Assembly: GCA_003117195.1 (NCBI GenBank)
Contig: BDSI01000075.1
Span: 310,001 to 374,000 of the forward strand
DNA from: Eudorina sp. 2006-703-Eu-15
Lineage: Eukaryota > Chlorophyta > Chlorophyceae > Chlamydomonadales > Volvocaceae
Reading direction: 5' to 3'
Length of the DNA: 64,000 bases
Part shown: one piece after another, positions 39,449-64,000 of the stretch
Numbering within the stretch: the first letter of the stretch is position 1
Layout of the letters: each line of letters opens with the position of its first letter
Program-made: the position numbers and the translations under genes
The notes under the pieces: model-generated
Seen by the model: only the letters and a program-made list of their open reading frames with translations
What the model was told of the DNA's origin: nothing
Database searches by the model: none

Positions 39449-42400
39449 CAATATGTGGGGGTCATCTCAGCACCTGCAGATGCAGCATCGGGCCAGCTGA
39501 CCGCTCGTCGCAAACCGGAGGGCTTCGGGCCAAAGCTCGTGCAGGGCGATTACACCTATACAACCTCGCGGAAAAACCTCATGGTGAGCTTGTCACCTTA
39601 TTGTCTGCGCCAGAGTGTTCCTATGGTCATCAATCATTACCATTTTGCTGGCCCAACCTTGTTAACTCCGTCGTAACGCCGCGACTCTTCGCGCGCAACC
39701 CCCCGCACCCACCCGTGCGGTATCTGCCCCGCGCACGCACACAAACAGACAACAACAACAACGACCACAAACCAAAAAGAAATTTAGGGTAACTCGTTCT
39801 ACACCTGGTTTCTAACTAAATTTGCAAGTTTAGATCCGGTGAACCGGCCCCACTAGCGTTCGGAGCTCCGCGCTGCTGCGTGCAAACCTGCTGCTGTGCC
39901 TCGCGCTCACCGCACCAACGTGTCCGCCATCTCATCCCATCCCAATTCGCTGTCGCCGCCTCGCGGTATCGCCCCCAACGTGCCATTAACACCCCGTTCC
40001 ACATGCGTGGGGCCAATCTCCGCAGCCACCGCGGCGCACGCCCTTCCCGGTCGCGGCGGTGCCCTGTGAACGCCATGGCCTCCGCCCACCTCGACCTGAC
40101 CTCCCCCGCCCTCGACCTCCCCCGCCCTCCCCGTGTATTGGCTCCTGTGCCACGCATCGGTTCCCCAATCCTTACCCCGCCCTCCCCCGGGGATCTGCGC
40201 GCTTCTCCTTCGTCCCCACCCCACCCCACCCTGGGGCCCCACCTCGTGTTTCCCGGGCCCGCAGGTCTCCTCTCAGTTCGTCGGGGGCGGGTCCTTACAG
40301 CCTGGAGCCACCTCAGCCGCGCCCTCCGCCGTCCCCTCCACCACCTCCGTGGGCGCCCTCCGAGGCACCATACCTGCCATGGTACCCATGAACGCGGGGA
40401 ATATCAACACGGCGGCGTGGAAGGCGTACGGCAGCCCCAGCGCCCGGAACCATTCACGACCGCCGCTGGCGCCGTCAGCTGGCGGAGGCGGCGGAGGTGG
40501 AGGCGGCGTTGCGGGCGCTGTCGGGGGCGCCGTCGCGAGCCCGGGGTGGGTCCCACCGCAGGGGGCACGGAGTGAAGTGCATGTTTTTACTAACCCCCTC
40601 GGGGGGAAAGCAGAAGTGGCACTGGGGAGTTCAGGGCTCAGGCTGTTGTCACTGCGTGCTGTGCCGGGCTGAGGGTGTGCCTGTACGGCAGCATGCGGCG
40701 CGTCGGGAACACGCCAGAACGTCTGGATCCTGGAGCCAGCGACCCATCGAGTTTGGATCCGGATCTCAAATCCAGCGTCCTTCCGGCCTTCAGGTCCACG
40801 CATAGGCGGCATGAGCATGATGACATACGTACGACAGCTGTCCACGGGGCCCCTCCCTGTACCGAACCGCCGCCCGGTAACTCCCTTGTCACCCTCCCGT
40901 GGGCCGCGTGTACGGATTATAATGAAGGCCACCCAGAACCGCCCAGGCCCGGATACTTACCATAACCTGCGATTTATGCGCGCGCCGCCGCAGGCCCGCG
41001 AAACTGCCTCGCGTGGGCGGCTTCAAACCCCGGAGGCCACAGAGCGCCCCCGGCATGGGCGGGGGCAACGGTGGCGACCTGGGTCCCGCGATCGCAGCCA
41101 TCGCCTCTACCGTGTCGATCGGCGCGGCGGCGCGGCGCGCCGGCAAGGTGCCTGACACGGTGGACGTGGGCGTGCTGGCCGTGGAGCATGTGGATCCCAT
41201 CCGGGCCGGCAGGACGGACTCGGGCAAGATCATGTTTGAGCACACGCTGCCCACTGACCCCTACGCCAAGTATATGTGGGAGGAGCAGGCGCGGAAAGCC
41301 CGGGCCAACATGTCCCGACACATCGCCGCCATGGCGGCGGCGGCGGCCGTCAACGGCGGAAACGCCTTCCAGCACGGCGGCGGCAGCGGGTATTCGTCGA
41401 CGGCGGCCGCCGGGGCGGCGTTCGCCGCCTCCGCCACGGGCGGCAGCGGCGGCGGCGGGAGTCGGCCCGGCTCCGCGGTGCGTGGCGGCGTCAGCGGTAC
41501 GGCACAGTCGCCGTCGGCGGGGCCGACGGTGACGGGCGCGGCGGCGCTAGCTGGAGCCGCGGGGTCACGGCCGCGGTTCTGTTCGACGCCTCTGGCGGAC
41601 GTGGCACGGCAGGGAACGGATTACAAGCCGCCGACGGTGCTGGGTTTCGCGGCGCCGGACCTCACGGAGGATGGGACTATGCCGGGGCCGGGGGACCCTC
41701 GGTGGGCTTACACACGGATGGGCCGCACTCAGATCGAACGGCTCCAGAACTCGCTGAAGATGGTGTCCGTCGCGCCGTCGCGCGCCAACGCACGACCGGC
41801 GTCCGCGCCGGCGTTGGGCGGCGCCGGCGGCGCCGCCGGCGCCACCGGCACTTACGTCGCCAGCGGTCTCGGCGGCGGGCAATCCGCCGGCGTCGGCATC
41901 GGTGTCGGTACGGATAACAGCCTCGGCGGCGTCGGCGTCAGCACCGGCGTCGGCAGCCCCGAGCGCAGTCTCGCGCGCGCGGAGCTGTCCGTACTGGATC
42001 CATTTTCGGATCCGACGCAGGGCGGCACCGCCGCCGCAGTCGCCGTCGCCGCCGGCGCGGGCGGCAGCCCCCTTGCTGCGCAGCGCTCGAGTCCGATGCG
42101 GTCGGGGTCGGGGAGCGGCGCGATGCGGGCGGGGTCCAACTCCGGGTTGGTGAGGCCGGGGTCGGCGGGGCTCATCCGCCCAGCCTCTGCGAGCTATGGT
42201 CGTACAGGCGCCCTCTCAGGCAACTTGGCGCGCTCGTCCTCCCACGGACTCGGCTTGCCGCGGCCCGGCTCCGCGGGCCTTATACGACCCACTTCCGCGA
42301 GCGCCTCCGGCGCCGCCGCCATGCTTGGCGTCGGGTCCTCCGCCGCCAACTTGGCGGCGGCGATGCTGGCGGAGGCGTCGGGCTCGCCGGCGGTGCCGCC

Positions 42401-43370
42401 GGTGCGCGGCGCGTCGGCGGGTCGTACACGCGAGGCGGCTCCCAACCCACGGGTCGATCTTCGGATGTACCTGGCGGAGGCGGAGGCCGACGCGGAGGAG
42501 GACGACGAAGGTACGGAGATGCTGCCGGTGGGCGACTTGTACGACGGTGGCATGGCCGGGGCTGCCGTACCTGGCGGAGGCGTGCTGGTGGGCGCCGACG
42601 GTCTGCCGGTGCCGGCGGCGGTTCTGCAGAGCATGCCCGTGCCAGCCGACCAGCTTGCGGCGAGGCTGGCGGAGATGGTGGCGGCGGTGGCGGTGGTGGC
42701 GGCGCAGAAGCAGATCGACGGGGACGAGCACCAACCGCGTGTACGGATCGAGGAGACGGACGACGACGGAAGGGATCTGAATCTGGATCTGGCGGCGGAG
42801 AAACCAGTCAACTCGGTTCCGGAGCCCGACTTCGCTGTCGGCCGTGACTCGGTGCCGCCGGCGCCGTCTGTGGAGTCGCCGGTGGCGCCGGCGCCGTCGC
42901 TGCAGACTCGCTTCAGTCGTCCCGAAGGCGACGACGCGCTGTTGGCGTTACACGGGTCTTCCAACTTTGGCGCGCGGCGGTCGGGAAGCCACTCCGGGGT
43001 GGGAGAGTACGGCAGGATGTCAGCGCTGTACGACAACGAAGGCGGGGTCGGCGAGTGGGACAGCGGCTCAGCGCCGCCGCCGATGGAGCAGCCGCTTGGG
43101 CTGGGTGTCGGGCTTGGGCCGCGGCCTGGCAAAGGGCCCTTGGGATCTGGATCTGGGTCGTCTGGATTTGGATCTGGATCTGGATCCGGAGCCGGACGGC
43201 CGACTTCGGCGCGGCCAATGTCAGCCCGGCCAACCTCAGCGCGGCCCACATCGGCGATGCCGGTCCGCCGCAGTGGCAGCCCGGTGCGTGGCCTGGGGGA
43301 GGGCGGGCTGGACGGCGGCATGGACGTCATCATGGAGCAGTCGGAGGGGACACTGGGGGAAGACTGTTGA
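39449..43370 (+). CDS. large low-complexity protein, unrecognised, 5' end unresolved
   Basis: Exons 39449-39583, 40265-40545 and 40994-43370 join in phase (phase 0, then 2+1) to about 930 residues. Exon 1 shows ADAASGQLTARRKPEGFGPK and GDYTYTTSRKNLM. Exon 2 includes NINTAAWKAYGSPSARNHSR. Exon 3 opens LPRVGGFKPRRPQSAPG and a conserved-looking block, KIMFEHTLPTDPYAKYMWEE. It then runs through Gly/Ala/Ser-rich sequence with repeated RPGSAGLIRP(A/T)SAS units and a C-terminal array of ARP(T/M)S units, ending in an acidic tail. The Arg-Pro-Ser-Ala repeats look like basic, phosphorylatable, possibly microtubule-binding segments, which is inference from composition only. The start codon should lie upstream of 39449. 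Confidence 0.65.
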
Positions 43371-46623: not shown

Positions 46624-49600
46624 ATGGCAGCAAGTCCTGAGCCTAAGGTAAGAGTTGCGACCGGAATGTTGATTTGAAGTGCACACAGAAAACCTGGTCC
46701 ATACCAGACATAACTCATATAATTGTTGCTTACATTTTGCGCGCTGTGAAGTTTGTGGCTCACTGGCAGTACCCGGCTTTAAGAGTACCTGGTGTGTTGC
46801 GCCGCACGACGTGGTCCACTCATGGGAAGTCTGGACCCTGCCATCCGTCTAATAACCCCCCCGTCAACGCCGCACCTTGCAAACCTTACAACTCACCCCC
46901 CCCTTTCAAACTCCCCGCACCAGCTCCGCCAACTTCAGTCAGGCCGTCATGTTGACCACCCCCTTCACCATCGGTGTCTTCATGGTCCGAGACTTCCTGG
47001 CCGCCAAACAGGGTGGCAGTGTAGAAGCGGTCGATGAGCAGCTAGTCGGGCAACTGACGGGGCTACTGGTGAGATCATGGTCTCTATTTGTACGGCAGGC
47101 AGTGCTGCCAGTTATGTTGTCTGTCTCTGCACGTCGTCACACAGTTGGTACCTTGACAACCTCGCATGTGCCGTACATATTCCAACCCCAGGCGGGCATC
47201 TTCTCCTTCTCCTCCTTCCTCACCGCCTACGCCTGGGGCTGCGCGTCAAACTACATCGGGCGCAAGGTACGTCGCACACCCCTGCTCCGGATGCAAATCC
47301 GCCGGCCCGCCTGCCTGGTTCCGGTCACATAGCTATCTGGTTTGTTTGATGGGAACCCAAATCTCCCTCCCTCCCCGCCTCACACACGGTGCCTTTCACC
47401 CCTTCGTCCCCCTCAGCCCGTCATCGCCATTGGGAACTTCGTGTCATTTGTCAGCATCCTTTGGTTCGGTCTGTCGGGCAGCTACGGCACCGCGCTGGCG
47501 GCCAGGGCCTTCGGCGGCTTCCTCAACGGAATTCTGGGGGCTTGGAAATGCATGATCGGTGAGAATTGGCCGCTTTACATCGCTGCATATGCTGCACACG
47601 TACAGTGGTAGAATGCGACCCGGTTCCCCCAACACCAATGCGATCCAAGCCTGACCCATATGGACCTCCCCCGTTGCCCAACCGGCCCCGCAGGCGAGTC
47701 CACGGCAGTGCTGCTCCAGGGCAAGTTCTTCGGCTACATGAGCTTGGCGTGGGGGCTGGGCTGCATCACGGGACCCGCCCTTGGGGGCGCTCTGTCCAGG
47801 CCGTGCAGCCGGGCGCCGCACCTGGTGCTGTGCGGGGAGCACGGACTGCTGAAGAGGAGGTAGCTACGAGTAGCTGGGGGTTAGCAGGGCGGGCAGCTGG
47901 GAGGAGCGGGCCGGGCGGCTGGGAGGGGCAGGGCGGGTATCTAGGAGGGGCAGGGCGGGTAGCTAGGAGGGGCAGGGCGGGTAATTGGGAGGGGCGGGGC
48001 GGGGAGCTGGGACCCGGGGGCTCATGGACACGGGTGGGCCCCCATGTGCGCGCGACCGCGGGGAGCTGGGGACCCATGCGGTGTGTGCTGTGATTGTACG
48101 ACCAGCGCAGTTTTGCGATTTGGGTCGAGATAGCTTCTCACTCCTGGAAGGGCGGTGACGAGAGGCCACCGTCCTGCGCCGAGCGTGCGCGCCTTGATCT
48201 CTTGGTCTTTGCTCCCGCTCGTCGCTCACCGCCCTCCGCTCTCCATACTCCATCCTCTTCAGGCCTTACTTCCTTCCCTGCGCGGTGGGCAGCCTCACCA
48301 TTCTGGCCGCCTTCCTGCTGTCGGTGCTGCTGCTGGAGGAGACCCTGCCCGCGGCCATGCAAGCCAAGGGGCTGGGGGCGGTCATCCGGCGGAGGGTGAG
48401 GCGGCGGCGGAGGGAGAGGCGCAGGCTGCTGAAACATTCGCAGCAGCAGGGAATCCGCGGCGACGGAGAGGAGGCGGACGCCGAGTCGGACGCGAGCGCC
48501 GAGACCAGCGCTCGGGAAGGCCTGGAAGTGCAGCTATCTGACGCCTTGGAGTTAGATGAACTCAAACACAAGATGTCGCGAAGGTGGCGACGGCGTGGAC
48601 GGCGGCGGCAGCAGCAGCAGCAATCGACGCCTGAGGCCTCACCGGCGGCGGCCTCACGATGTGCACTCGGCAGCAACGGCGACGCAGACGGGGAACTGGA
48701 CGCGGAGGTAAGCGGCGGCAGCCGCTTGGAGCGAGCCGCCCTGCTGCCAGGCGCGGCTGAGGCACGATCTGATGCGCTCCCTCGAGCGCTGGATCGCGCG
48801 CCCACCCACCACCACCACCACAGGTCTTCTGTACATCTGAAAGCACCTGAGCACTACGGCATCTCGCTCCGTCGCCTCGTGCTTGGGGGTGGTAGGGCCC
48901 CCGCCCGGCCCGGACTGCCCCCCGACGTGGAATCTAACGCCAGCTTCAGCACGGTTTCGGAGTTTTCGGACAGCGAGGCGAGCACCGACCCATGGGACGA
49001 TACCGACGCAGAGCACGGGCGTGGCGGACGCGGTGGCGGCGCCGGTGCTGGCGAGTCCCCGGACCGGACGCCCTCCGTGACGCGGCTGGAGGGCCTGCTG
49101 CGCCTGGCCTCCCGCACCTACATCGATTTCAACCCCTTCCGCCGCAACGGGTCACTGCGAGGCCGGCGGGAGGGATCCAACCCGCCGCAGGCAGCACCGG
49201 AAAGGCCGCCGCCGCGAGTTTCGGCCGAGCCTACGACCGCAAGCGTCGCACTCGCCGTCAGATGTCCGCCAGCAACAGCAGTAGGGGCCCAAACCGGTGG
49301 CGGGCACGGATGTGTGGAGGGCAGACCAGGAGGAGGTGTCACGACGGCGGCGAGCGGCACCATGCATGATGGCGGCGAGCGGGGCTGCGGCCGAGTCCGT
49401 GACGGCCACGGGCTGGGCGGGGACACCTGGGACGGCAGCCACGGCTGCGAGGACTGGGACAACGACCGGGGCGACACGCCGAGGGAGCCGGGGGCCGGCG
49501 GTGGCGGCGGAGGCGGCGGAAACGGTGCCAAGGACAAGCGCGCCTTGGATTTGGTTGGGGCGGATCGCCTTGCTTTGCATCCCGCCGACGGCGAGTCACA

Positions 49601-51940
49601 GCAGTCGCGTTCCGGACGTGGCGGTTGTGGCAGTGGCGGCGGCGGCGGCTGCAGGGACGGGGCGCCGCGTTGGGAGTCCAGCACCAGCAGGGCGGGAGCA
49701 GGCAGCAGCAGCGGTGCGCCGGGCCGGGTGGCTGACGGGGCGGCCGCTGAGGTCGCTGCGACAGCGCCCCTGCCGCGCGGGAGTAGTACACGCCAGCTGG
49801 CGGAATCGCCGGGTGCAGCGGGGGTGGAAGGCCAAGTCATACAGGATCCGGAGCGGACCCCGCTGCTGCAGCCGACACCCACCGCTTCCCCTAGAGCCCG
49901 AGATGGCGAACCCCAGGAGGAGGAGCACTGTGGGCAAATCCACCGAGTCGTTGAGCGGCACCCTGGGGACCACGACCAGGGTGCTTGTGCCGGTTGTGGC
50001 AGCGGGGACGGCGGCCTGGGAGATGGCGGGGGCAGTGGCGGAGGCGAAGACAGCAGCGCCCTGGAGCAGAGGGTCTCGCACCCGGCGCAACCTGGCAGCC
50101 TGCACGGCAGCGCTGCCGAGCTTTGGGGCGCGTGGGAGGGGGGAGCTGGTGGAACCGGGGACCAGGCGCGTGACCGAGGCGGCAGAGCCGGGCGTGCGGG
50201 GGCTGCGGCGGAGATGGAGGGTGGCCCGGAGACAGCCTCCGGCGCTGCCGCCGCGGTGGACGACTGCGATCCTGCGGGCGGTCAGAGTCCGCGGCGGCTG
50301 GAGAAGGGGGAGGAGCTAGGTGGCGGGGACGCCGTGGTAGAGGTGCTGCGGGACGTCGCCGGAGGGGGAGAGGAGCGGGCGCAAGCGCGGCCGTGGTACC
50401 GCTGCCGCGAGGTGCGCAACGGACGGGCTTGAGACCAGCCAGGGGCCGGGAAGGCGGTCCCCTTCGGAGAACCCAGAGATGCGTCTGCTTCTCGGCAACG
50501 AGCAGTGTGCGCCCCTGACAGTGCACACAAACGTTAGGCGGACATACCGTATTCTCCTGGGACCGTTCTCGATCGTCCCGCTCTATAATGCCCATAACGC
50601 TGCGTGTCGGCCTGTCGAGCGCGCCAATCCGCCTCGGCAACACCGCGGCAGGTTCAGCACCGCCGCGTTGACCCCGGCGACCCTCGTCCCTCCCTCCCTC
50701 CCTCCCGGGCGCAGGTCGTCCTCACAATCCTGGGCTACGGCGCCGTGGCCCTCATCTTCTGTGCGCTAGATGAGGTGTTCCCGATATACGCGTCCGCGCC
50801 GCTGGTCTCGGGCGGTCTGGGCATGCGCGAGGAGCAGCTGGCGCCGCCGCTCATGTTCTTCGGCATCATTCTGATGCCGTACAGTTTGTACGTCTACCCG
50901 CCGCTGCAGCGCCACGTGGGCACGCTGCGGCTGACGATGGTGGGGCTGGCGGTGGCGTTCCTGACGTGCTTCATGCTGCCGCTGGTGGCGGATGTGCGGC
51001 CGGCCAGCTTCGTGGGCGCCCAGGTGAGGGACCTGATGGCGCTCGGGTACAGATCGGGCCTTGCAGGGAAAATGTCGATAGATGGGGTGTCGATAGATGG
51101 GGAAGGCATGCCGGGTCGGCACTGCATGAAAGGCCGCGTCCGTCCGTCCGTCCCTATGTTCGTCCGTCCTCGGAAGGCCGACGCGCGGTGTAGCTGGTTC
51201 CCGCAGGGAAAATATTGTCGTGTCTGGGAGCTGCGGATCAGCGGTTGGCCGCACCGGCTGTTGGGTCGCGCATACGACAAAGTAGATGTACGGTCGTTCA
51301 TTGTGGACGGGATATCTTAGGACCTCGCACGCACAGCACGTTGCAACACAGGGATGGCTGCAGCCCCGCATCCCGCGTAGCTCAGATCTGGTCGCCCCGG
51401 GGGAGACTCGGGTCCCGTGTGCGGGATTGCGCCCCAGGGGCCCGGGCGGGGATGCGCCCGAGGGCCCGGGCGGACAGGGGAGGACGAAGGGCCGCCCGCG
51501 ACGGCGGGACCTGGCCCGCAGGCCGGCCGGCCGAGCATCGAACGCTGTCGTTGTCCATTTCCATTCTGACTCCAGCTGCGGGGCAGTGTACGGTATGACC
51601 TCAGCATGTCCTTAACACGCCCGGCGTGTGTTTTCTGCAGGTGCTTTTGTACGGCACCATGGTTGCCAAGGCTTTTGCGCAGTGCAGCGCCTTCACGGGC
51701 TCCATCATCGCGGTAAACGCCGCCCCCGCCCCGGAGCAGCTGGGGGCGGTGAACGGGGTGGGGCAGACCCTGGCGGCGCTGGTGCGCGGAGTGGGCCCGG
51801 CGCTGGGCGGAGTGCTGTGGTCCGTGTCCCTGGGGCTGCACTCCGCCGGCCAGCAGTTCCTCACATTTGCCATGATCGCGGGGGTCGCGGCGGCCACGTG
51901 CGGGCTGTACGCGTTCGTGAGGCTGCCTGGGATGAGGTGA
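46624..51940 (+). CDS. ZIFL-like major facilitator transporter with giant central loop
   Basis: Secondary transporter of the major facilitator superfamily. Firm exons: 46924(or 46943)-47068, 47192-47266, 47417-47558, 47694-47859, 48263-50411, 50715-51023, 51641-51940. A short first exon, MAASPEPK (46624-46647, donor GTAAGA), fits if the second starts at 46943. Helices are seen around VMLTTPFTIGVFMV, AGIFSFSSFLTAYAWG, PVIAIGNFVSFVSILWF, GYMSLAWGLGCITGPALGG, YFLPCAVGSLTILAAFLLS, then VVLTILGYGAVALIF, LMFFGIILMPYSLY, LTMVGLAVAFLTCFMLPLV, GTMVAKAFAQCSAF and FLTFAMIAGVAAATCGLYAF. The loop-2/3 signature reads WGCASNYIGRK: Asn stands where the family usually has Asp. VGQTLAALVRGVGPALGG is the usual repeat near helix 11. 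Exon 5 encodes about 670 residues of Gly/Ala/Arg/acidic disordered sequence between helices 6 and 7. The substrate cannot be read from sequence; zinc/organic-anion ZIFL proteins are the closest pattern. Confidence 0.88.
47885..48016 (+). repeat. 22-bp minisatellite in transporter intron
   Basis: Units of CAGGGCGGGTAGCTAGGAGG plus GG repeat at 47929, 47951 and 47973, with more degenerate copies on both sides, inside the intron between 47859 and 48263. Confidence 0.85.
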
Positions 51941-52886
51941 AACGGGCGGAAGAGCCAGGGTTGATCGATGACCCCGCCCTTGTTATAAACGAGGTAAGGC
52001 GACCTTGACTGTTTTATCCGCCTGCAAAGCACGCGATACCATGGATACCCCCAGAGCTGATCTGGATAACCCTCACCAGTCTGCGTATGCCGAGCTTATA
52101 TGATCTGATGGTTGCCGCCATGTCGTGTGCTTGCGTTGCACACGACTTGCACGTAGTACACCCGGACTATTAGCACTTCGCGCCGCCAGCATTGGTTGCC
52201 GTGGTGCCGTATTTTTGGTGCGTCATAGGGTTCGTCGGTGCGCGCACCGGTTCATTGGTGGGGACCTCGGTGGGGCGCAGCACTTCGCCTTGCGTGTTCT
52301 ACGGCCGTGCGTGCCTTTGCGTTGTGTTCTCCGGCCGCAGCGACGGTCAGATGAGAGCTTTTAAACGACAACTGTGGCTGAAACACAATGTCCGTAAGTA
52401 TATCGATCGTATCAGCCGAGCAGCAGTACAGATGTGTACGGCTGTTCGGTATCGACATGCGGTGGGCATTCATCCCGTGTTGCAGACGCGCAATTCTGAG
52501 GCGCCGCCTTTTGTCTTGGCGTTCTCCAGTGTGGTGGCTGGCGAAGTGTCTCTCGTCTGAATATACGCTCCAGGTGTTTCGTTTGTTTGATGTGCCGCGA
52601 GTCGCCGCCGCGTCGATCTGGAAGGGTGCGGAGGTGCGTGGGACTGTTGTGCGCTTGTGCCCCCTCCCCCTCCCCCGCGTGGAACGGTCTGAAGGACGAC
52701 GTTGCTATACATGAGTGTGTGCTCGACTGGCCTGGCCGTACCACCGTCTTACGAGGTGCCGTGCACTGGGGTAATTGCCTGCCATTTTTTTGTGCCGCGC
52801 TTTTTCTGTCCAAAGCGTTTTGATAGAGTGTTTGTTCCTGGTGGATACTGCGATTTTATCAAGATTTTATTGGCTTTGACTTGTAT

Positions 52887-52939
52887 GTGCACGGTGTTTT
52901 GCTGGGCGCTTTTGACTATTGTGCACGGTGTTTTGCTGG
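52887..52939 (+). repeat. 19-bp direct repeat pair
   Basis: GTGCACGGTGTTTTGCTGG occurs exactly at 52887-52905 and 52921-52939, downstream of the transporter gene. Confidence 0.7.
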
Positions 52940-54086
52940 ATACAGGCGGTCAGGCGCGAGGGCAAGAACCCATGCACGGCGGCGATTGTGTGTCGATTTC
53001 CGTTTGCCGATTTTGTCGCAGATAAATGGAGTGAGTCCCAAGTGTTCCACGGTTGCCTTGCTCCTGGCGCTCGGTACGTGCGCAGGAGTCCCGAGTGTCC
53101 GCCATTTGGGTCTCCCCCTGCTGCGCTGCTGGCAGGCTGGCTCAGGCTTACGGCATTTCGGGTACCTGTCGCGTCACGACCCACCGAATGCCCACCAGCT
53201 GTCCAACGGATTGTGGGTGCGTGGCAGGTTTGCCATCGGTCTAACCAAAAAGAGAGGGGAGTACGGTAACAGTAGGCTCAGCAACGGTCCAGACTTCAAT
53301 GCCTCCAAGCCAAGTTTGCGGGTAGGCTTTGGTAGCTTAGTAGGCCTAACGGCCCAGGCACTGCTCGGGGGAAGGCAGCCGCGAAACAAACAAACCACCG
53401 TCGCCACGTTTTACACCACCGGAGAACTCCGCGCTTCATACCTTTGCAGCTGCACCAGCCGCCAGGCAGCCGTGTTCCAGACGACGCACATGAAAGGACA
53501 CCAGCGCCACCCACGACGGAGGCAGCCCGATCGAGGTACCCACGGTGCCGCAAAAGGAACCGTGGCGTGACCCAAGGTATGTCCCGTGGCGTGAGCCACG
53601 CAACAAATAAGCGTGATTCAGAAGCCGTCGCCGTCGTCATAAAATCATGGGCTTCGAGGCTTTCGTCCCCCGGACAGCCCCTACTGCTCTGAGCGCCGCG
53701 CCCAAAGCGTCCACCCTCTTGGCTGGTCCGTGACCGACAGCAGCGTGGTCCCTCGTGGCCGCGCAGCTGCGCACCCGGGGGACGGGCACAGTCCGCGTCC
53801 ACACCGCACTTACTTCAAGTATCGAATTACTGTGTTAGTACGATGACGCGGACTACGCCGTACGCACACTGAACCATGCATAACGGGACTGCCTTGCCTA
53901 GCTACCGAGGAACACACAATGTTAAGGCCGCCTAAATTTCCACTCGGGAGAATATGTACGTTTATGTATGTGCATGTACCTAATTTAAGCCTCTCGACTG
54001 GCCACGATTCACAGCGGTCACGAGTCTGCGACAGCGCAGACTACGCAAAATGTTCATGCTGCGGGGTGCAGTGTTAGATGACGCAC

Positions 54087-54154
54087 TTACAGCCTGCTCC
54101 CCCGGGGCGGCCTTCTCCCCAGGTCCTCGCCGAGCACGCCCTTGCGGCGTGCTC
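54087..54154 (-). terminator. Argonaute 3' end: hairpin and TGTAA signal
   Basis: Reading the minus strand past the stop at 54311, a perfect 9-bp stem with a 5-base loop (GAGCACGCC/GGCGTGCTC, 54132-54154) is followed by TGTAA at 54091-54087, 220 bases after the stop. The TGTAA is a plausible poly(A) signal. The hairpin has no known role. Confidence 0.45.
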
Positions 54155-54310
54155 CTAAGTCCCGCCCCTTAGCGCCCTGCTGCTATAGCCCCCGCACTGT
54201 GTGTATTGCCAGCCCCCGCCTCTGCTGGTGACCCCCCCACCCTGGACTGCGTGCGTGCTCCTAGCCCCCGCCCTGGGCAGCGAGCTCCAAGCGTCCTTCG
54301 GGTTTGGCCG

Positions 54311-57300
54311 TCACATGAAGAACATCACGTTGTTCAGGTTCCGGTGAATCTGCGCGAAGCGGGCTTGCGCCGGCTCCGACGGCGCCGCTGCGGCGCCGCT
54401 GCTGGGCCCGGCGCCACCGCCACCGCCGCGCCCGCTCCGAACGGACCCGGCGTCGGAGCCGCTCTCCGAAGAGGACGACAGCTGCAACCGTGGGTGGCGA
54501 GGGGGATCCAACCCATTAAAAAGGGCGGTGAGCGGACATGCAGGTTGAGAGTGTGCTGTGGTACCTGTCGGCGACAGCTATCCGAAACGATGTCCATCAA
54601 GGCTGGTTGGTGAACTCTTGCTGCGCACACCTCCTCCTTCCTTGCAGACCGGTCCCATGGTTTCATGTTGCGCCACATCCGTACCTTACTTTCCCCTTGA
54701 TGAACAGGTCCGCCTGGCATCGACTAGCCCACCTTGCACGCCTCAGCTCCCTTCTATACCCTTGCCCCAGCTCCTTTCTACACCCTTGCGTGCCCCTATT
54801 CCAGACCCCGCAACCCACGCACCCAAATGTTTCGGGTAATCTCTTACACTTCCAATTTATCCCCTCTAAGCAACACACATGCACCCACCAGTATGGTGCG
54901 CCCACGGAAGGCGGCGCGGTCGGCGTAGTACGCTGGGGGGCAGTAGCTGACCGACCTGCAAGTGCCACGTATGACCGTGAATGACAGTCGCAGGTAAGAA
55001 AAGAGTAAAATGGTGACGTTGCAATACCACACAACAACACTACAAATATGCAGACCAACGTTTCCGTGTGCACATTGGTAGCCACAATAGCCTCGTGCTC
55101 GAAGCCCGTGCCCGGACCTGGGCCCGATGGTCCAACAAGGGGGGAAACGGGTCGCCAGACAGGTGGACCCAATCAAGCGGTTCACTCGGCAGGACATCCG
55201 TCGCCCTGATTGCGACGTGCATGTACCGCCGTGTGCACAGTGCCCATGTACGGCAATATTGCTGCAGTTGCTGTCCCACAGTATGATCTGCTGCCCTCGA
55301 ACACAATGAGCACTAAACACGTCTACTATTCGTGCACCACTAATACTCGTGCCCTGGTGATGTATGCCATCCCCGACAACCCCCCCAGCTTCACATTCCC
55401 CAGCCCACATCCACTCCTCCACTTACTTGGTGGCCCGCTGGTACAGGTAGCACATCCAGTACGTGAGCAGCTGGACACCGGACGCCCCGAAACCGATCTC
55501 ATCCACCAGGACGTGGTAGTGGGCCGGCTTGTTGGTGCCCTGACGATGGCGGGCGGGGGCGCGAAATGGGAGAGCGAGGTGCGGCAGAGGGGGACAGACC
55601 TCAAGACCAGTGTGGATAAACCGAATTGGTGAGGAATGAAGCTAATAGGATGTGCTGACTGTGTGCGCAAGGATTCCAGATTCGCTTCATGTGTGTTATG
55701 TACTAGGTTGGGTGATTATGTATCGGAAGCTGTGGGATCGGGTTAGTTGGCGGGTGGGAGAAAGTCCATTCCACAAGGGAGTTGCATGGATGCATCTTAA
55801 TGTATGATTGTCGTACTACTACAATTGCCGTACGTGGCTAGTAGCCACACCTGTGTGAGGTGCTTGACGACCGCCCTACCTGACATCCAAACCCGCCCAC
55901 ACCTACATCCACCGGCTGCTGCTCACCTGCAACCCCGCATGGCTGTTCAAGAAGAAGTCGAAACTCGCTGGCTTCACGATGCCACGGTCCACCAGCAAGC
56001 CCGGCAGGACGTTGCGCCTGCAACCGACAGCAGTACGACGGGGCGCAACAGATGCGACACTACTTGTACACACACCGGGCCGCCAACCCGCCATCGACGC
56101 ACCGTACCCACAGAAATGCATGCATACCCCGTTGTCCTCCTCCTGTTGCGTGTCGCATTCGCAATCTCGCGACCGACCCAGAAGTACAGTTGAGAACGAA
56201 AGATACCGTAGCATCACCCATCCACCACCCACTTCTGGTCCCCGGCGGAGGGATCCTCCCTGGAGGCCAGCAACCGTGTGTTGTGGTTTTTCTGCACCAC
56301 GACGAAGGTGATGTCGGGCTTGTACCCCGTGTCGAGCCCGCGGCAAGCCTGGTAGGGTCAGCAAGCAAAGCGGCATGAAGGGGATAAACTTTTCATTTTT
56401 TAAGCAAATATTCTAATCGACGCACTGCACGTAATTGGCGTACAGCAAACCCTAAAGACCCTAAAACCCCTAAACCCTAGATAGCGACCTTCCCGCGGAT
56501 ATCCGGTGTGGATGTTGCTTGATTGTCCATGTGTACCTGGGCTACCTAAGGACGCCTCGACAACAAGCATGGATTTGCTCCATGAGCTGAAGCCAGTTCA
56601 TTGGCAGTTGTGATGTGCATGCCAAACTTCTACCTCGCCACAGCTACAAGTGAACTGGCTTTTCGAGGCGTCCCTAGCCCAGGCACGTATGGATCACAGA
56701 CATTCACATCGGATATCCGCAGGAAGCTCGCTAACTACGGTTTAGGGTGTCAGTGAGCTTTCTGACAACTAGGGTCTCTATCTAGGGTTAGTTTTCGAAC
56801 GGCAAAGAGGTTCTGTACGTCTGATGTACATATGTGCCCCCCCCCGCCCCCTTCCCACTCTTGTCCACACTCGGGTGCATACTCACCCTGCGGATGGCTG
56901 TGTACTCCTTCTCCAGCACCTGCATGAACTCGCCCTCGGAGACTCCGTCCCGGTACATCAGCAGGCGATCGGGCCTCTTGCCCCTGTGCGAGGACGGAAG
57001 CAAGCAGTAGACGTCAGGTAATAAGGCCATGATAAGCTCATTTCTTGCTGGTCCATGCAAGACACCTGTAGCGCCGGGTTACAGTATCAAGTCGCCGTGT
57101 TACAACGAACACCCGATACTACCCACACATGAGCGCCGCCGCGTGCGCGGTTACCCTGGACAGGGGGAGGTTGTCTAATAGGAAAGTCACTGGCATGCTG
57201 TCCGAAGATTCTTAGTTCAAGTCCCGGCCCCCTCCCCGCCACGTTGCCAACCAACCCATTCGGCGGGTCTGTTTCCAGGCGAGCCAATAATTCTGGCGCA

Positions 57301-60300
57301 CTAGCTAGTAACCTGGATGGTGCATTAGCCGGTATAGCTGCACGACCCCCGCCCTCCCGGGTGATGGAGGATGGGTGCGCGGTCCTTGGTATGGTATGAG
57401 GTGAGGCGCGATGATGTTGTGGAGATGGCGCGATGAGATGAGAAGCGATTCCGCATCGATACAGTCTTACCTGTTCTTATTCATGAAGTCAAGCAAGAGC
57501 TCCTTTGTTGCGGCCTCCATACCCGAGATCCATTCTTGGCGGCCGGGCTGCAGCATCACCCTAGTCGACCACCGGCCCAGGGTTTGGTCCATGGACCCCA
57601 CCACCGCAGCCACGGACTGGCCAATAGGAGCCCCACCGGCATGGCCCCCCGGCGGCAAGGTGGGGTGGGAGACGTCGGCGCCCATAATCATGAACGGTCG
57701 CGCCCCGTCGCCGCCCAGGACCGGGAGGTGCCTGTGGCAGGTTGTGGTGCGCGGGGAGCCGGATCGATGCAGCGGGTTGGGGTGGGATGGGGACGTGGGT
57801 GGGGGTGTGTCCTGGCTGGTGTGTGTGTGTAAACAGCTCGGTGACGGCTTCTTCTTTGGCCCCCAAATCCCCGCATGTCTCCTCCTCGGCTTTGTACTGA
57901 ACGCGGATATGATTGTTTTATTTTTTGTTTTCCGGGAATCCCTCATCAGCATGCATATGTGCGTCCTTAGTTCCACCCCCTTTACCAAACCACACACAGT
58001 ACACAATCATGATTAGCTAGATTATCACGCACCGAAGGCCACCCAGCAGCGTTGTGTTCACGCCGCCGATCTTGCAGTTAATCTTCAAGGCGACGTTGGC
58101 GCAGTACTGCGGGTTGCCACCCTGCCGCTCAGGCGTCGCCTGGGTAAGGGTATAGTAAGGGGTACACCAGGGAGCAGGGTTACTACCATGAGTCGAGTCC
58201 GGTGCACCGTGGCGGCGCAGTTTCGTTTATGCAGTGTTTGGTGGTTGAGGAAGCTTCGGCGGCTGTCACCGATGACCCGCGGGGTCCACTGTAACATCCT
58301 TAACCCCTCGACTCATGCCTTGTTGAGGGGTATGGCCACGAGTATGGTCACGGGTATAGACGAGTGAACACAAAATACTGCACTGATATCAAGCAGTGGA
58401 GAAAGAATACGAAGTCCGCAAGCTGGTCAATGAGCCAAACTGGCAGAAACTGCCGCGAATGAAGGCTTGCATGTTTCGAACAGCATATGGTGCATGCGTG
58501 CGTTAGCTTATTACACATCCAAGACCTACTTGGGAGGTGATGGTTGCCGTACTTACATGCTTCAAGACGATTACTTGTGAGGGCACGCCCAGCTCGACGT
58601 CAGAAACGTGCTTGATTTCCCGGTACATCTCCGCGGTCGCCTGCAACAATCCAAGCAAACAAGTACACATGATACCTTCAGCAGCAGCAACAACCAGCAC
58701 GTAAATAAACAGCTATTACCAAGATTGCGAGCGTGATGAATAAATGGATTGGAATCAGAAGAGGTGCTTCACCAAGTACAACGAACCCTTCTCGCATGTG
58801 CGTACCTACCCCTACCGCCTGCATTGTATACCCACTTTTTCCTGAACGACGACCATGATAATCTGCGGCGTCCGGCCAAACACACTCTTGGCTGCCGCAT
58901 CAGCATTCCGCATGGCATTCCCGACACTGTTGCCGTGCTCCAAAGGGGGGTTTGTTGCGGCTCCCTAGTTGCGGCGTCAAGGGATCCATAAGGGGTTCCC
59001 GGAGGTCGTCGGGTCTTGAAACGTACAATCAATGTGCGTGACCATAAACACAAAGCATGATGCACGTGCATACATACAGGTTCCCTACCTAAGCTCACTA
59101 CACACGCAATCAATGGGCACTGTTGAGGCGCGCTTAAGAATACACCTGAACTTTTCGAGCTTTTCGAGGCAGCCCGGCCGTGAAACAAATTTTGCGAGCT
59201 TCGATATTATCCTCGAGACGGAACTGAGGCATACACACGCACGGAACGCAGGTATCTTAAGTGGTGCAGCCCCGGACCTGTCAGGTAGGCACAGGATCGC
59301 AGCGTGCACGCCACCACGTACACCACCAGCGTACCCAACGGCATCAATTATAGTTAAGGGGGCCTACATTGAAAAACCTTGCACCTCGTCGGCGCGCTCG
59401 CAAGAAATACTTTATTTGCGAGAATTGTCCGCCAGTCTGTCAGCATACTTGGTTTTTAGGAATTGCAACGAATTTAGGAATTTAGGAACTATTATCTAAA
59501 GACAATTCAGAACCTCGCAAAGCACAAAACCATTGTCGCGGGTTACCTCGGAATCAAGCAAACAGTTGGGTTTGAAATTTGAAATGTTTGCGAGGCACCC
59601 CGACTATCTGTATCGAGGTATCCTTGAAGGTTGCCAGGTCCTCATTATCGTCACATCACTAATAAATCCCATAAAACCCCTTGCGAATTCTTTGTTTAGG
59701 GGGGCAAACTCATTCTGACAAAATGTATTTACCCCGAAGGTCATTTTTTGTAATGTTATTCAAAAGCAAATCGTTCACATCATTCGCACATCGTTAATTA
59801 AAGGATCACATCTGAAGAGGCAATACGGATATATACCATGCCTACCTGCAGGCGGATGCCGCAGGTTTCCAGCATCCTAACCTGCTGGCGCAGGTAGTCC
59901 ATAACGCGGTGCTCCTGGGATAGGTGGGTGGAACCGGCGGGCGGGTGCGCAATGACATGCATGGGTGTATTATATATATCTGAGGCAGTTTTAGAGAGCG
60001 AGGGCCCACCATTTCGTTGTTTGTTCAAATGCGTACATACATGCATGTCCCCACGCTGCATCGACGAGGCCTTCCATCCAGTGGCGCATTACAGCTCACG
60101 CACCCTTTTGTCAATGGAGATGACAGCGACCGCCCAGGAGGAAATGGAGCCGGGCGCCACGAAGTTCACACCCCTGCCGTGCAGTATGGTACATACAGAT
60201 AGATTTTTGAAGACACGATTGACAGATGCTGGCCCCCATACAGGTCGAATGAGGATATTCTGCCCTACTGACCTGCCCGATGGATCTCGAGTAATACGGC

Positions 60301-63300
60301 AGATTACGGGGACCAATGTACGGCAAAATACGGGGACCCACATGGATGCCCATTCTGGAGCAATTTTGGGCTGGCCCAATCACACCACTGCACACATACA
60401 CCCGTGCAGCTGGCCCGTGCATGCCTTTGCATCTGGTCGAACAAATAATGCAACCCGTTCATGAACGAAAATACACAGTACCTGGACATTTTGGACAGGT
60501 ACCGTATCATTTCGTTCATGAACGGGTTGGTGCGACCAGCAGGTTCCCCCGTTCTGCACTTAATTACTCTTGATTCCGACAAACTCCTGTTGCCGCCCGT
60601 CCACTGCGACATTCCCATGCACTCACCTCAGATTCCAGGCACCCGCGGTGCCTGTCTCCACCGCCTTGTTGGACCCGTACTCCAGTACGGGAGACGGCAG
60701 CACCTGTGCTTGCACCTGCAGCATCTCCCGCTGCTGCACCTGTAGCCCCCAGCACTGCTCCTTGCCGCTGTCATGCAGCAGCTTGGACACAGCCTTCACC
60801 TGCATGGCATAAGGCAGGGCCGCCGCCGGGGGTAACAAGAGGTTGAGGGCTAAATCTGCTGCAGCATGTACATCCTCACCCAGCCAGCCAGCAGGGCGTG
60901 CGGGTGGGGGACCCGCCCGATGGCGATGCCATGCAATGCAATCCAAAAGTGCCCTGCTGCCATCGATGCTCGCGCGCCCAATGGTTTCAGCACACATTCC
61001 TTTAAGCTCGGCGTGGATGGATGGGGAGCGAACCCATTTGGAGGGGCCGGGATTGATTGATTTGAACCGGAGCTTGCTTACGCTTGCTACTCACTCGTGC
61101 TAACGTACAAGATGCTCACATTTCTGTTTATTGCTTGCTCCTTGGTCCCGGGGTCCTGTTTCGCGGCCGTGATCATCGCGGATGCCTGGTCCGCGTCCAA
61201 TTGCATGCGCCGCTGGTCGCCCAGGAGCCTGGTGCGTGCGTGTGTGTGTTGGAATAGTAGTAAGGCAGCAGGTAAGGGTGATGGCCGACCATTGCTGTCG
61301 ACTTGCATAGGAGAGGTAATGACCGACCATCAATGCTAAAACATATAGGGTCTCTAGAGCAATTCGGGTGCATGGGCTAGTTGTGGGGATTCTGCCAACC
61401 CAGTTATAATATTCGCCAAAATAATCGCGCCAACCATCGATCCACAGATGCAGTAGATAGATCATCTGTTCTACTCACGTGCAAAGCTCCGCGGGGATGT
61501 AGGTGGGGCGGTCCCGCCGGCCCACGTTGACGCAGGGCAGCCACGGCATCTTGAGGGGTCTCCCAGTGTCGCGGAAGTAGTCGGCGACGGACATATCACT
61601 GTGCGTGGGTGGATGGTGAGGGGCACAGGATGGGTGAGGGGCACAGGCGTATGTGGGCTATCCTCGGCACGCAGGCAAAGCAAACGGCCGGGGAGACAAT
61701 AAGGAATGGAGTGCTGTCGTACAGCCTCCGTCTTGCGGCAAGCAAGCGAGATACAATTATACCGTACGTAGAACGCATTAAAAGCTCTATTACTGTCACT
61801 GCCGAATGGTATGCATGCCAGATGCCGTCCTACCGTTGCGCGCTGCTGTTGAAGAAGACAGTCTTGTCGGCGCCAAGTTCGGAGAACCCCACGATAGCCT
61901 TGCGCTTTGCGCCCTTCCCCGGCAGAGGGTACTCCACCTGTCGGTGCGTGTGTTCACATGCAGCAGGCAGGGCAGGTACGTACGTAGTGTGTGTGATAGG
62001 GGATGGACGGAAGCACCCCCACCCAATGCCGTGTCGGTCATGGGAGATGGGCAAGCGCTAGGCCGTGACCAGCTGGTGCTCATCACAGTCCCAGCTCCCA
62101 GATGCGCCCAATCAGCGAAATTTTATGGAAATGGTAAGGTGCCACGCGCCGCCCGCAGCGACGTACCTTGAAGCCAATCAGCGGGCGGGTCACCGCACGG
62201 ACACGGCGGGGATCCGGCTGGGCTCCGCCTGCATAAGCAGTCTTCACCACCCCGGCGAGGTCGGTTCTCGCCGTGAAGGCGCCGAACGTCGAGTCCAAGT
62301 TGAGCGTCAGACCCGCCTCGACGACTTTAAAGGACTGGCGGCGCGCGGGTGGGTGATGAGGACACAAGCGAATCAACCAAAAGCTTGTATGTATGCGTTG
62401 CAGCAATTGGCTTTGGCTATGGCTTTCACCGGCCGACCATGTCCCATGTAAACTACATACATACATGCACGAGCGAGGAGACGCGCGCACGCTCACTAGA
62501 GACAAATGCACAGTTAGGCGGGGTTGCCCCAGGTAATCAATGTGGCCCCGGGCCATCCAGGTGTCTTTTCAGTCGGTGCGCTTGTGGCGCGTGCTGGCGG
62601 CTCGGTGCGCCTTCCGAGTGAGGCGACTGGCGAGGCGGCGGCTGTCACCCACCTACCTAGCTACGGACCCGGCGACGGCGTCTTGTCGGGCGCATGCAAG
62701 CATGATCCGAGCGTAGCGAGGTATGTAGGTGAATAGAATGTGCAGATACGCGAGTACCGAAAAGAAAAGCAAATCCTAGCTTCATCATCGCCGCGTGCGC
62801 ACGACTATGAACCGCCGTACATGCACATGCCGTACATGGTTGGTTGCCGTGTTATTACCTGCTTGACACCTTCTACGAGGTTCCACGCTCCACCGGGCAT
62901 TGCGCGAGTGTTGCCCGAGCCCATGATGAAGATGGAGCGGCCGGCCAGCACGCAGTTCCGATCGATGGCGAAAGGGTGTCGAATCGCGATGTCAACTGCC
63001 TGTACGATGTACGGACAGGTGGAACGGGTGGCGGGCGGTGGGCGGGCGGGCGGCCGGGCGGGCGATCGGGGTGCCGGATGTAACATCAAATATAAGGACG
63101 AACGAAACCCAAATAAACAACCCATCCAGCCCGGCGCCGCACGCACAGCAAATTTCCCGAAACAGCGAGGGCCCTTTCAGCGTCCCGTCTTGACCTGTCC
63201 GGGGACTGGGTCATGCCGTTTCTGTGCAGCAATTCGTATACCCGACCCTAACCCCTGGTTGGCACGCCCTCCCCGTCTTTGACGCGGGTTCTTTGTTCAT

Positions 63301-63824
63301 GGGGCCTGGCGCATCGGGCCCTCGCTGTCTCCGCCCCTCCGTTACGCCCTAATCCGTTTCGACCGAATCCCCGAAACGAATCCCCCATGCAAAGCACGCA
63401 CGACCGCCAAACAACAAGCGATGGAGAACCCCTCGCTCGGCGGTCATTCACCCATGAAACTGAATGAACGCAACGAACCAACCTGGCTCCATCCCCTTAA
63501 CAACACAATTTAATTAGCAAATCAAACATAACTGTGATTCTGTTGTCCCAACTGGCGAGCGAGGCAGCAGGCCGTAGCCGCGGTATGTATCAAGTCAGTT
63601 CCTTAACAGCGGCAACGCATCAACACGTAGCTGTACGGCGACGTACGTGTTACACCTGACCAACTCCCAACCACCGTAACCAACCAACTGTTACCTCTGC
63701 TAACGCGCTTGATGGGCCCGCACGCACACACCTGCATCGCGTCGCGGACATCCGCCTGCATAAGGCCCTCGATCATGCCGAACAGCTGGGTGAGATCCAC
63801 CGTGGCCACTAGCTTGATGTCGAC
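54311..63824 (-). CDS. Argonaute (PAZ-MID-PIWI), slicer-competent, 5' end outside window
   Basis: Small-RNA-guided silencing protein. Nineteen exons join in phase: 63824-63732, 62999-62859, 62334-62167, 61937-61834, 61598-61479, 61228-61120, 60799-60627, 60173-60104, 59914-59846, 58937-58836, 58640-58557, 58139-58033, 57731-57471, 56983-56887, 56348-56233, 56017-55927, 55539-55427, 54955-54889, 54481-54311; 751 visible residues. Linker 1 has SFKVVEAGLTLNLDS; PAZ about 105-215 (VEYPLPGKGAKRKAIVGFSE, DYFRDTG, PCVNVGRRDRPTYIPAELC). MID about 300-440 carries the 5'-phosphate pocket: MYREIK (Tyr, Lys), VPSQVIV (Gln), VALKINCKIGG (two Lys). PIWI holds the catalytic tetrad: Asp in IMGADVSHP, Glu in GRQEWI, Asp in YRDGVSEGEF, His in KPAHYHVLVDE. 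It ends CPPAYYADRAAFRGR, a Ser/Gly/Ala linker of about 40 residues, then IHRNLNNVMFFM. Chlamydomonas has several Argonautes; which one this matches cannot be told without its N-terminus. Confidence 0.96.
56449..56791. mobile_element. MITE-like inverted-repeat element with telomere-like ends
   Basis: Lies wholly in the Argonaute intron 56349-56886. The left arm (CCCTAAAGACCCTAAAACCC ... GATAGCGACCTTCC, GCGGATATCCG, TGTGGATGT, CCTGGGCTA, GGACGCCTCGA) pairs with the right arm (TCGAGGCGTCC, TAGCCCAGGCA, ACATTCACATCGGATATCCG, GGAAGCTCGCTAACTACGG, TTTAGGG). An inner pair, AAGCCAGTTCA (56590) and TGAACTGGCTT (56651), extends it. The arms are imperfect, about 100 bases each, and no reading frame is present. 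Both outer ends carry CCCTAAA-type words like plant/green-algal telomere repeats. Target-site duplication is not obvious. Confidence 0.8.
57164..57237 (+). other. tRNA-like sequence, probably not a functional tRNA
   Basis: A 74-base stretch in the Argonaute intron 56984-57470 has a perfect 7-bp acceptor-like stem (GGGGAGG/CCTCCCC), an A-box-like TTGTCTAATAGG and a B-box-like AGTTCAAGTCC at about tRNA spacing. The D and T stems do not pair properly, so a tRNA relic or SINE head is more likely than a gene. Confidence 0.3.
58187..58317 (-). mobile_element. dispersed repeat, copy C: about 131-bp MITE-like element
   Basis: It is bounded by a perfect 11-bp inverted pair (CATGAGTCGAG at 58187-58197, CTCGACTCATG at 58307-58317) inside the Argonaute intron 58140-58556. 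The reverse complement of 58247-58303 is nearly identical to 1350-1404, and its first 30 bases also match 3795-3829 reversed. No coding capacity. Confidence 0.7.
60295..60338. repeat. tandem pair of a 24-bp unit
   Basis: TACGGCAGATTACGGGGACC (60295-60314) is followed after AATG by TACGGCAAAATACGGGGACC (60319-60338), in the same Argonaute intron as the palindrome at 60433. Confidence 0.7.
60433..60539. repeat. near-palindromic hairpin element in Argonaute intron
   Basis: CAACCCGTTCATGAACGAAA (60451-60470) is exactly complementary to 60510-60529. Pairing continues inward (CAGTACCTG with CAGGTACCG) and outward (CTGGTCG with CGACCAG), giving arms of about 50 bases around a short loop near 60485-60495. 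It lies in the intron 60174-60626. Confidence 0.85.
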
Positions 63825-64000
63825 CTGCGGGGTGTACGGATGTACGGCCGAGGAGTACGGACGTGGTCGATCGTCCTCGCAGCTGCGTGGGAAGGGCTCG
63901 CTGTGGTTGGGGTTGTGTAAAGTATAGCTGTCGTACACACACACACCTCTTTTGATCAAGGGCTGACACAATAGGACACAGCTGTAGCGGGCTAGCGGCT
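63825..64000. other. Argonaute intron reaching the window edge
   Basis: The first visible Argonaute exon starts in phase 0 after an AG acceptor at 63825. No further coding sequence is seen up to the edge, which contains a (CA)n run near 63935-63946. The N-terminal exons must lie beyond 64000. Confidence 0.6.

What the first reader, a model, noticed from the sequence alone, without database searches (positions are those of the whole stretch)
54311..63824. Argonaute gene with complete slicer tetrad and 5'-phosphate pocket, fragmented into at least 19 exons
The translated exons show all four catalytic residues (Asp, Glu, Asp, His) and the Tyr/Lys/Gln/Lys/Lys guide-binding set, so this copy should be able to bind and cut. 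Established knowledge: volvocine algae use Argonautes for miRNA/siRNA silencing and transposon control.
Basis: partly seen in the sequence, partly recalled or inferred. Interest (0 to 1): 0.75.

Follow-up and report, generated by a model that had tools for sequence, protein, structure and literature searches.

The report
Second, fast-evolving Argonaute of volvocine algae

Summary
The gene is real and intact. Nineteen exons on the minus strand (63824 to 54311) are open and joined by GT-AG introns. Seven more lie beyond the window, giving a 26-exon model from ATG to stop (1,111 residues) with a glycine/arginine-rich N terminus.

One claim is wrong: the metal-binding tetrad is Asp-Glu-Asp-Asp. 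The residue aligned with human AGO2 H807 is Asp, as published for Chlamydomonas AGO2/3 and Volvox AGO3. The Tyr/Lys/Gln/Lys/Lys pocket is confirmed.

The genome has at least two Argonautes. The window gene groups with second copies of Pleodorina starrii, Volvox carteri and V. reticuliferus (99/95, 99/98; 82/89 with volvocine rows only) and evolves several times faster than the AGO3-like copy. These four lost the arginine at human R710, proposed to contact the scissile phosphate (Asn in three, Ala in one; Arg in 223 of 232 homologue rows). The 12 volvocine rows readable at H712 have Asn. In human AGO2, removing both side chains slows slicing 47-fold and eases central-mismatch penalties (PMC11893014).

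Best reading: a guide-RNA binder, predicted to slice slowly or tolerantly. I had no expression or biochemical data.

The parts
54311..63824 (-). Window part of the Argonaute gene: 19 of 26 modelled exons (end of N domain to stop codon). The gene continues upstream to 67790 in window-extended coordinates (contig C75:377790)
   Evidence: open, GT-AG introns, 1,111 aa from ATG to TGA
63732..63824 (-). exon 8 of 26 (end of N domain; an alternative in-frame splice ends it at 63728 and starts the next exon at 62995)
   Evidence: choice made by position of the C117 intron
62859..62999 (-). exon 9 (linker 1)
   Evidence: Pfam ArgoL1
62167..62334 (-). exon 10 (end of L1, start of PAZ region)
61834..61937 (-). 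exon 11 (PAZ)
61479..61598 (-). exon 12 (PAZ)
61120..61228 (-). exon 13 (PAZ/L2)
60627..60799 (-). exon 14 (linker 2)
60104..60173 (-). exon 15 (L2/MID)
59837..59914 (-). exon 16 (MID)
58836..58964 (-). exon 17 (MID)
58530..58640 (-). exon 18 (MID; 5'-phosphate pocket Tyr 58625-58623, Lys 58613-58611, Gln 58577-58575)
58033..58121 (-). exon 19 (MID; pocket Lys 58085-58083 and Lys 58073-58071)
57471..57731 (-). exon 20 (PIWI; catalytic Asp 57676-57674 and Glu 57535-57533; Tyr654 position is Met, 57484-57482)
56887..56983 (-). exon 21 (PIWI; catalytic Asp 56949-56947)
56233..56348 (-). exon 22 (PIWI; central loop Lys-Asn-His-Asn-Thr-Arg; Asn at human R710 = 56288-56286, Asn at H712 = 56282-56280)
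55927..56017 (-). exon 23 (PIWI)
55427..55539 (-). exon 24 (PIWI; contains the HYHVL motif, whose His residues are not the catalytic one)
54889..54955 (-). exon 25 (PIWI; fourth catalytic position is Asp, 54921-54919; 5'-phosphate contact Arg 54906-54904)
54311..54481 (-). exon 26, C-terminal tail and stop

Best explanation
The gene encodes an intact AGO-clade Argonaute, the fast-evolving second ('B') paralogue of volvocacean algae beside the AGO3-like 'A' copy on contig C117. Shown by sequence: N-PAZ-MID-PIWI architecture with a glycine/arginine-rich N terminus, intact 5'-phosphate pocket, metal tetrad DEDD, and Asn at the positions of human R710 and H712. Inferred: it loads 5'-phosphorylated small RNAs and silences their targets. 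Its chemistry is predicted to be weaker or more mismatch-tolerant than that of a standard slicer, because both side chains that are proposed to hold the target strand around the scissile phosphate are gone. It would then act mainly by binding, or by slow cleavage that tolerates central mismatches.
For: Intact 26-exon frame with 25 of 25 GT-AG introns. GC3 of the 958-codon, 23-exon model 80% against 54% GC in its 18 window introns, a coding signature. ArgoN, ArgoL1, PAZ, ArgoMid and Piwi above Pfam cut-offs (ArgoL2 below). Pocket and tetrad residues. B grouping 99/95 (whole protein) and 99/98 (MID-PIWI), so the gene has been kept in four species counting this one. R710 replaced in 4 of 4 B rows (N, N, A, N) and R in 8 of 8 readable A rows of 9; R in 223 of 232 homologue rows, the three N rows being B. 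Human R710A slows slicing 12-fold and R710A/H712A 47-fold with no substantial change in kon, and central mismatch penalties shrink (PMC11893014, passages).
Against: No expression or small-RNA data. The human mutants are Ala; here it is Asn, in another background. A-type volvocine AGOs already have Asn at 712, so the baseline differs, and the effect of R710 loss alone in human AGO2 is 12-fold. B support falls to 82/89 (78% of bootstrap trees) when only volvocine rows are used, and without the V. carteri row the free search did not recover the other three together (held-together tree equally likely, p-AU 0.50). Relaxed constraint without a new function would also give fast evolution.
Confidence: 0.6

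Rival explanations
1. An ordinary slicing Argonaute: the B copy does the same miRNA/siRNA-guided cleavage as AGO3, and the R710 change is tolerated or compensated.
For: Metal tetrad and 5'-phosphate pocket intact. DEDD is held to be slicing-competent: AtAGO2 has DDD and 'appears to be' active (PMC5093975, passage); Cr-AGO2/3 are DEDD (PMC6668577, section 5 read). R710A alone costs only 12-fold in human AGO2.
Against: Four of four B proteins lost R710. At sites invariant in A rows and vertebrate AGO2, B rows differ at 13-18 of 113-134 against 0-5 for eight of nine A rows left out one at a time; but the ninth, Tetrabaena, differs at 12 of 136, so this excess is not peculiar to B (MID/PIWI sites only: B 11-17 of 106-126, A 0-4, Tetrabaena 12 of 136).
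Confidence: 0.25
2. A decaying paralogue on its way to a pseudogene, with relaxed constraint over the whole protein.
For: More unique changes than C117 in each of five domains, least clearly in L2 (15 against 7); lower GC3 than the A copy (80% against 90%); the additional V. carteri AGO transcript could not be amplified in full (PMC5093975, section 6 read).
Against: No stop, no frameshift, 25 of 25 introns GT-AG; NG86 dN 0.42 and dS 0.84 against C117 over 743 codons (dS high, so rough); tetrad and pocket residues kept; kept in four species.
Confidence: 0.12
3. Not one old paralogue but separate duplications in each genus, drawn together by long-branch attraction.
For: The ingroup-only tree supports B at 82/89 and warns that the two Volvox B branches meet as long branches; one of four leave-one-out runs did not recover B. 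AU tests do not reject a clade of the four volvocacean A copies alone, or of A, Gonium and Chlamydomonas without B (p 0.27, 0.23).
Against: R710 lost in 4 of 4 B rows, and T599S in 4 of 4 B rows against T in 9 of 9 A rows (S at 599 is not rare, 41 rows of the wider set); 99/95 and 99/98 with wider sampling.
Confidence: 0.1

Closest known systems
Pleodorina starrii 'Protein argonaute-3' second copy (P0006)
   Same: Closest by tree (95/92; 87/84); 59% identity over 571 aligned columns; DEDD, and Asn at 710 and 712
   Different: Its annotated model is 618 aa and lacks the N-terminal part
Volvox carteri second Argonaute-like protein (P0022); probably the 'additional AGO protein' of PMC5093975 (my inference)
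   Same: Same B group; Asn at 710 and 712
   Different: 52.5% identity over 497 columns; the annotated model misses the MID Tyr/Lys/Gln positions and stops before the fourth catalytic residue
Chlamydomonas reinhardtii AGO3 / AGO2 (P0002; PMC6668577)
   Same: DEDD tetrad, Y-K-Q-K pocket, GR-rich N terminus, similar MSG... start
   Different: 53% identity; keeps R710, Y654 and R688; slow-evolving A type
Volvox carteri AGO3 (P0004 by my inference; PMC5093975)
   Same: DDD-type active site, AGO domain order
   Different: A-type, like C117; binds 21-22 nt RNAs with mainly 5' U; no specific product in a standard cleavage assay
Human AGO2
   Same: Aligned over 765 query residues (E 7e-110), 5'-phosphate pocket, D597/E637/D669
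   Different: H807 is Asp; R710 and H712 are Asn; Y654 is Met

Membership tests
Eukaryotic Argonaute, AGO clade | N, PAZ, MID and PIWI domains in order | tested here: met
   ArgoN, ArgoL1, PAZ, ArgoMid, Piwi above cut-off; ArgoL2 at 20.3 bits, below its 33.3 cut-off
Eukaryotic Argonaute, AGO clade | Closer to AGO than to PIWI-clade proteins | tested here: met
   chains of AGO1-4 at E 3.7e-102 or lower and argonaute 10 at 1.1e-98, against 4.8e-31 for the best Piwi chain
Eukaryotic Argonaute, AGO clade | RNase H-like tetrad DEDX | tested here: met
   D, E, D, D
Eukaryotic Argonaute, AGO clade | 5'-phosphate pocket Y, K, Q, K, K (+R812) | tested here: met
Eukaryotic Argonaute, AGO clade | Binds small RNA and silences | not testable with these tools
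   no RNA or protein data
   Asp, codon GAC 54921-54919
Slicing Argonaute with standard central loop | Arg at 710 and His at 712 | tested here: not met
   Asn at both; H712 is Asn in the 8 readable A rows too
Volvocine AGO2/3 family | Glycine/arginine-rich N-terminal extension | tested here: met
   exons 2 and 6, seen by eye; described for Cr-AGO2/3 in PMC6668577 (passages)
Volvocacean B paralogue | Groups with P0006, P0020, P0022 | tested here: met
   99/95, 99/98; weaker, 82/89, in the ingroup-only tree
Volvocacean B paralogue | Arose at the base of Volvocaceae after the split from Gonium | tested here: inconclusive
   A4+B4 clade 91/94; AU tests do not reject the alternatives

The most novel reading that the evidence does not exclude
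Volvocacean algae evolved, with their colonial body plan, a second Argonaute whose catalytic metal site is kept while the clamp on the scissile phosphate (human R710, H712) is lost and part of the tryptophan-pocket surface (positions 654, 660, 688, 694; the pocket role of 654 and 694 is recalled) drifts within the group: a dedicated slow or mismatch-tolerant Argonaute, perhaps for transposon-derived or diverging small-RNA targets, with other partners than AGO3.
Probability: 0.3. Interest if true: 0.65.

Novelty: new variant of a known kind. Interest (0 to 1): 0.42.

Why it matters
The second Argonaute of Volvox was noted in 2016, but its transcript could not be amplified in full (PMC5093975). 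A complete 26-exon model in a relative, together with the shared loss, in four species, of a residue proposed in 2024 to contact the scissile phosphate, turns 'another AGO' into a testable case. It asks whether a lineage that became multicellular split guide-RNA silencing between a conserved Argonaute and a fast-evolving, mismatch-tolerant one.

Tried and rejected
Pseudogene or assembly break: judged unlikely. Chance ORFs: rejected. A His at the fourth catalytic position: rejected.

Dicer: the RNase III family PF00636 gave 0 matches in the own genome. The search reads exon by exon, so this does not show absence; V. carteri has one Dicer. RdRP (PF05183) and a further Argonaute (query P0002) could not be searched, because the tool was unreachable. 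The only count of Argonaute loci is: seven PIWI exon matches at two loci, C75 and C117; a divergent AGO1-type gene could have been missed.

Tryptophan-pocket change as main claim: kept as a side observation. K660 and R688 are named as human Trp-site mutants in PMC11336974 (passages); the role of Y654 and L694 is recalled. In the window gene R688 and L694 are unchanged, K660 is Arg and Y654 is Met; across the homologue set position 654 varies widely. A paper search for these residues found nothing or one paper.

Relative-rate test with Chlamydomonas eustigma P0010 as outgroup: significant for three of four pairs; Pleodorina 46 against 36, p 0.32. YN00 failed. The PAZ and helix-7 rows of the residue table are not used: that vertebrate row (P0184) lacks part of PAZ, so its numbering there is wrong; I recounted on MID/PIWI sites alone. 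No match of window 48000-64000 in the plasmid collection; no tRNA found in the window. Three short tandem arrays in 53000-64000, of no evident bearing. PMC10066295 held none of four RNAi terms, and PMC5704591 (passages) and PMC11923369 (passages) did not help on function.

Structure prediction was not run: the fold is not in doubt, and I judged a spliced protein to fall outside the sequences that the tool's text accepts.
Full report
Setting. The window is contig C75:310001-374000 of an unnamed 181-Mb genome in 3,033 contigs. The Argonaute trees place it among Pleodorina and Volvox.

Gene model. A Piwi-family search finds seven exon matches at two loci, C75 (window, minus strand) and C117:192925-194820. 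I fetched DNA beyond the window and aligned both loci to a profile of nine volvocine Argonautes with a spliced dynamic program of my own, then completed the N terminus by hand from conserved motifs and splice sites. The model has 26 exons, of which 19 lie in the window (63824 to 54311); the other seven lie at 64262-67790 in window-extended coordinates. All 25 introns are GT-AG and the frame gives 1,111 residues from ATG to TGA. The start, MSGGGGGYY..., resembles the MSGRGRGGGGG... of C. reinhardtii AGO3 (P0002). Exon 8/9 can be spliced two ways in the same frame; I prefer 63732/62999 because it matches the C117 intron. The end of exon 2 also has alternatives in a repeat. Exon 5's donor (GTTTGG) and exon 7 are the weakest parts. 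Against C117, 14 of 18 window introns lie at the same alignment column and phase; a fifteenth would do so with the preferred splice choice, and three keep the phase but are shifted 6-9 columns. The copies thus arose by DNA duplication, not by retroposition (inference).

Active site. HMMER alignment to human AGO2 and a MAFFT alignment of 17 proteins place D597, E637, D669 on Asp, Glu, Asp and H807 on Asp. DEDD is the volvocine state (11 of 11 readable rows) and is published for Cr-AGO2/3 (PMC6668577, section 5 read) and as DDD for VcAGO3 (PMC5093975, passages). In the homologue set Asp stands at 807 in 41 of 230 rows and His in 187. The pocket residues Y529, K533, Q545, K566, K570 and R812 are conserved.

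What differs. The loop 709-714 is K-R-H-H-T-R in human AGO2, K-R-H-N-T-R in 8 of 8 readable A-type volvocine rows (the Gonium model lacks it), and K-(N/N/A/N)-H-N-T-R in the four B rows. R stands at 710 in 223 of 232 homologue rows; the three N rows are the window gene, Pleodorina P0006 and V. carteri P0022, and of two A rows one is V. reticuliferus P0020, the other a Tetradesmus protein. That set was chosen by similarity to the window gene, so it is not a survey of all Argonautes. PMC11893014 (passages) proposes that R710 contacts the scissile phosphate, by analogy to AtAGO10, and observes H712 at target phosphates 12-13. R710A slows slicing 12-fold and the double mutant 47-fold with no substantial change in kon, and loss of the contacts eases central mismatch penalties. 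From this I infer a slow or tolerant slicer; nothing here measures it. Position 654 (Tyr in 9 of 9 A rows) is M/Q/R/M in B, and K660, R688 and L694 vary in some B rows.

Phylogeny and rate. B (window gene, P0006, P0020, P0022) is one side of a branch with 99/95 on the whole protein (23 rows) and 99/98 on MID-PIWI (23 rows). In one search, B end branches are 0.33-0.60 changes per column, those of the four volvocacean A copies 0.04-0.08. Relative-rate counts with C. reinhardtii AGO3 as outgroup are 232 against 55 (window gene against C117), 118 against 28 (Pleodorina), 104 against 23 (V. reticuliferus) and 125 against 38 (V. carteri), each p < 1e-11. With the far outgroup C. eustigma three of four pairs remain significant and Pleodorina does not (p 0.32). 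By domain the window gene has 88 unique changes against 26 in N+L1, 21:5 in PAZ, 15:7 in L2, 52:10 in MID and 47:6 in PIWI. Gonium, Astrephomene, Tetrabaena and Chlamydomonas are represented only by rows outside B in the lists I saw (best 120 of 293, best 120 of 465), so absence of B there is not shown. An ingroup-only tree (13 rows) supports B at 82/89. Leaving out single B rows keeps the other three together in three of four runs (93/97, 92/95, 92/90); without the V. carteri row the free search missed the clade, which fits equally well (p-AU 0.50). The time of the duplication is not settled: AU tests do not reject the alternatives.

Decay or function. GC3 is 80% against 54% GC in introns. 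NG86 gives dN 0.42 and dS 0.84 between the two copies over 743 codons, with dS too high for precision. At sites invariant in A rows and a vertebrate AGO2, B rows differ at 13-18 of 113-134, and A rows left out one at a time at 0-5, except Tetrabaena at 12 of 136; on MID/PIWI sites alone B differs at 11-17 of 106-126 and A at 0-4, Tetrabaena again 12 of 136. The gene is constrained, less so than most A copies, with pocket and metal ligands spared.

Literature. PMC5093975 (section 6 read) reports VcAGO3 and one additional AGO gene whose full transcript could not be amplified; that this is P0022 is my inference. PMC4318128 (passages) put Chlamydomonas and Volvox AGOs into a plant tree, calls them highly divergent, and reports high diversity at functional sites in an additional file that I could not read; it may list the Volvox residues. 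PMC7994812 (passages) treats green-algal AGOs as 'algal-type'. Searches for Chlamydomonas + Argonaute + AGO3 + slicer (15 papers, 13 listed), Argonaute + Volvox + Gonium + Chlamydomonas (4), Pleodorina + Argonaute (2) and Volvox + Argonaute + phylogenetic + green algae + Dicer (22, 15 listed) showed no title or abstract start that describes this paralogue split or the R710 change; most listed papers I did not open, and the library is open-access only. So I do not claim that it is unpublished.

Verdict. An Argonaute gene is ordinary for a volvocine alga. The complete B model and the shared loss of R710 make it a new variant within a known family, worth a direct assay.

Noticed in passing
L010-L011 (C117:185072-195713, + strand): Second Argonaute of the same genome: 24 modelled exons, open, of an AGO3-like A-type gene with DEDD and a K-R-H-N-T-R loop, 72-81% identical to eight other volvocine A-type rows.
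   Followed up: yes
not in the window: PMC6668577, section 5: The paper says that Cr-AGO2/3 possess 'identical' DEDD tetrad residues as At-AGO1 and Hs-AGO2; human AGO2 has His at 807, so the wording is not exact.
   Followed up: partly
P0020, P0022 (V. reticuliferus, V. carteri B copies): The public models are partial: V. reticuliferus starts about L2 and V. carteri lacks part of MID; both end before the fourth catalytic residue, so they look mispredicted rather than broken (guess).
   Followed up: no
window 16336-17496, 21526-23037, 40926-43370, 48198-50432: Long GC-rich open frames (386, 503, 814, 744 aa) without any Pfam match; each overlaps a long frame on the opposite strand, so coding is unproven.
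   Followed up: partly
P0011 (metagenome contig, 2.4 kb): A metagenomic Argonaute with Asp at 807 joins the volvocine group on a long branch (0.98 and 0.89 changes per column): a possible unsampled relative.
   Followed up: no
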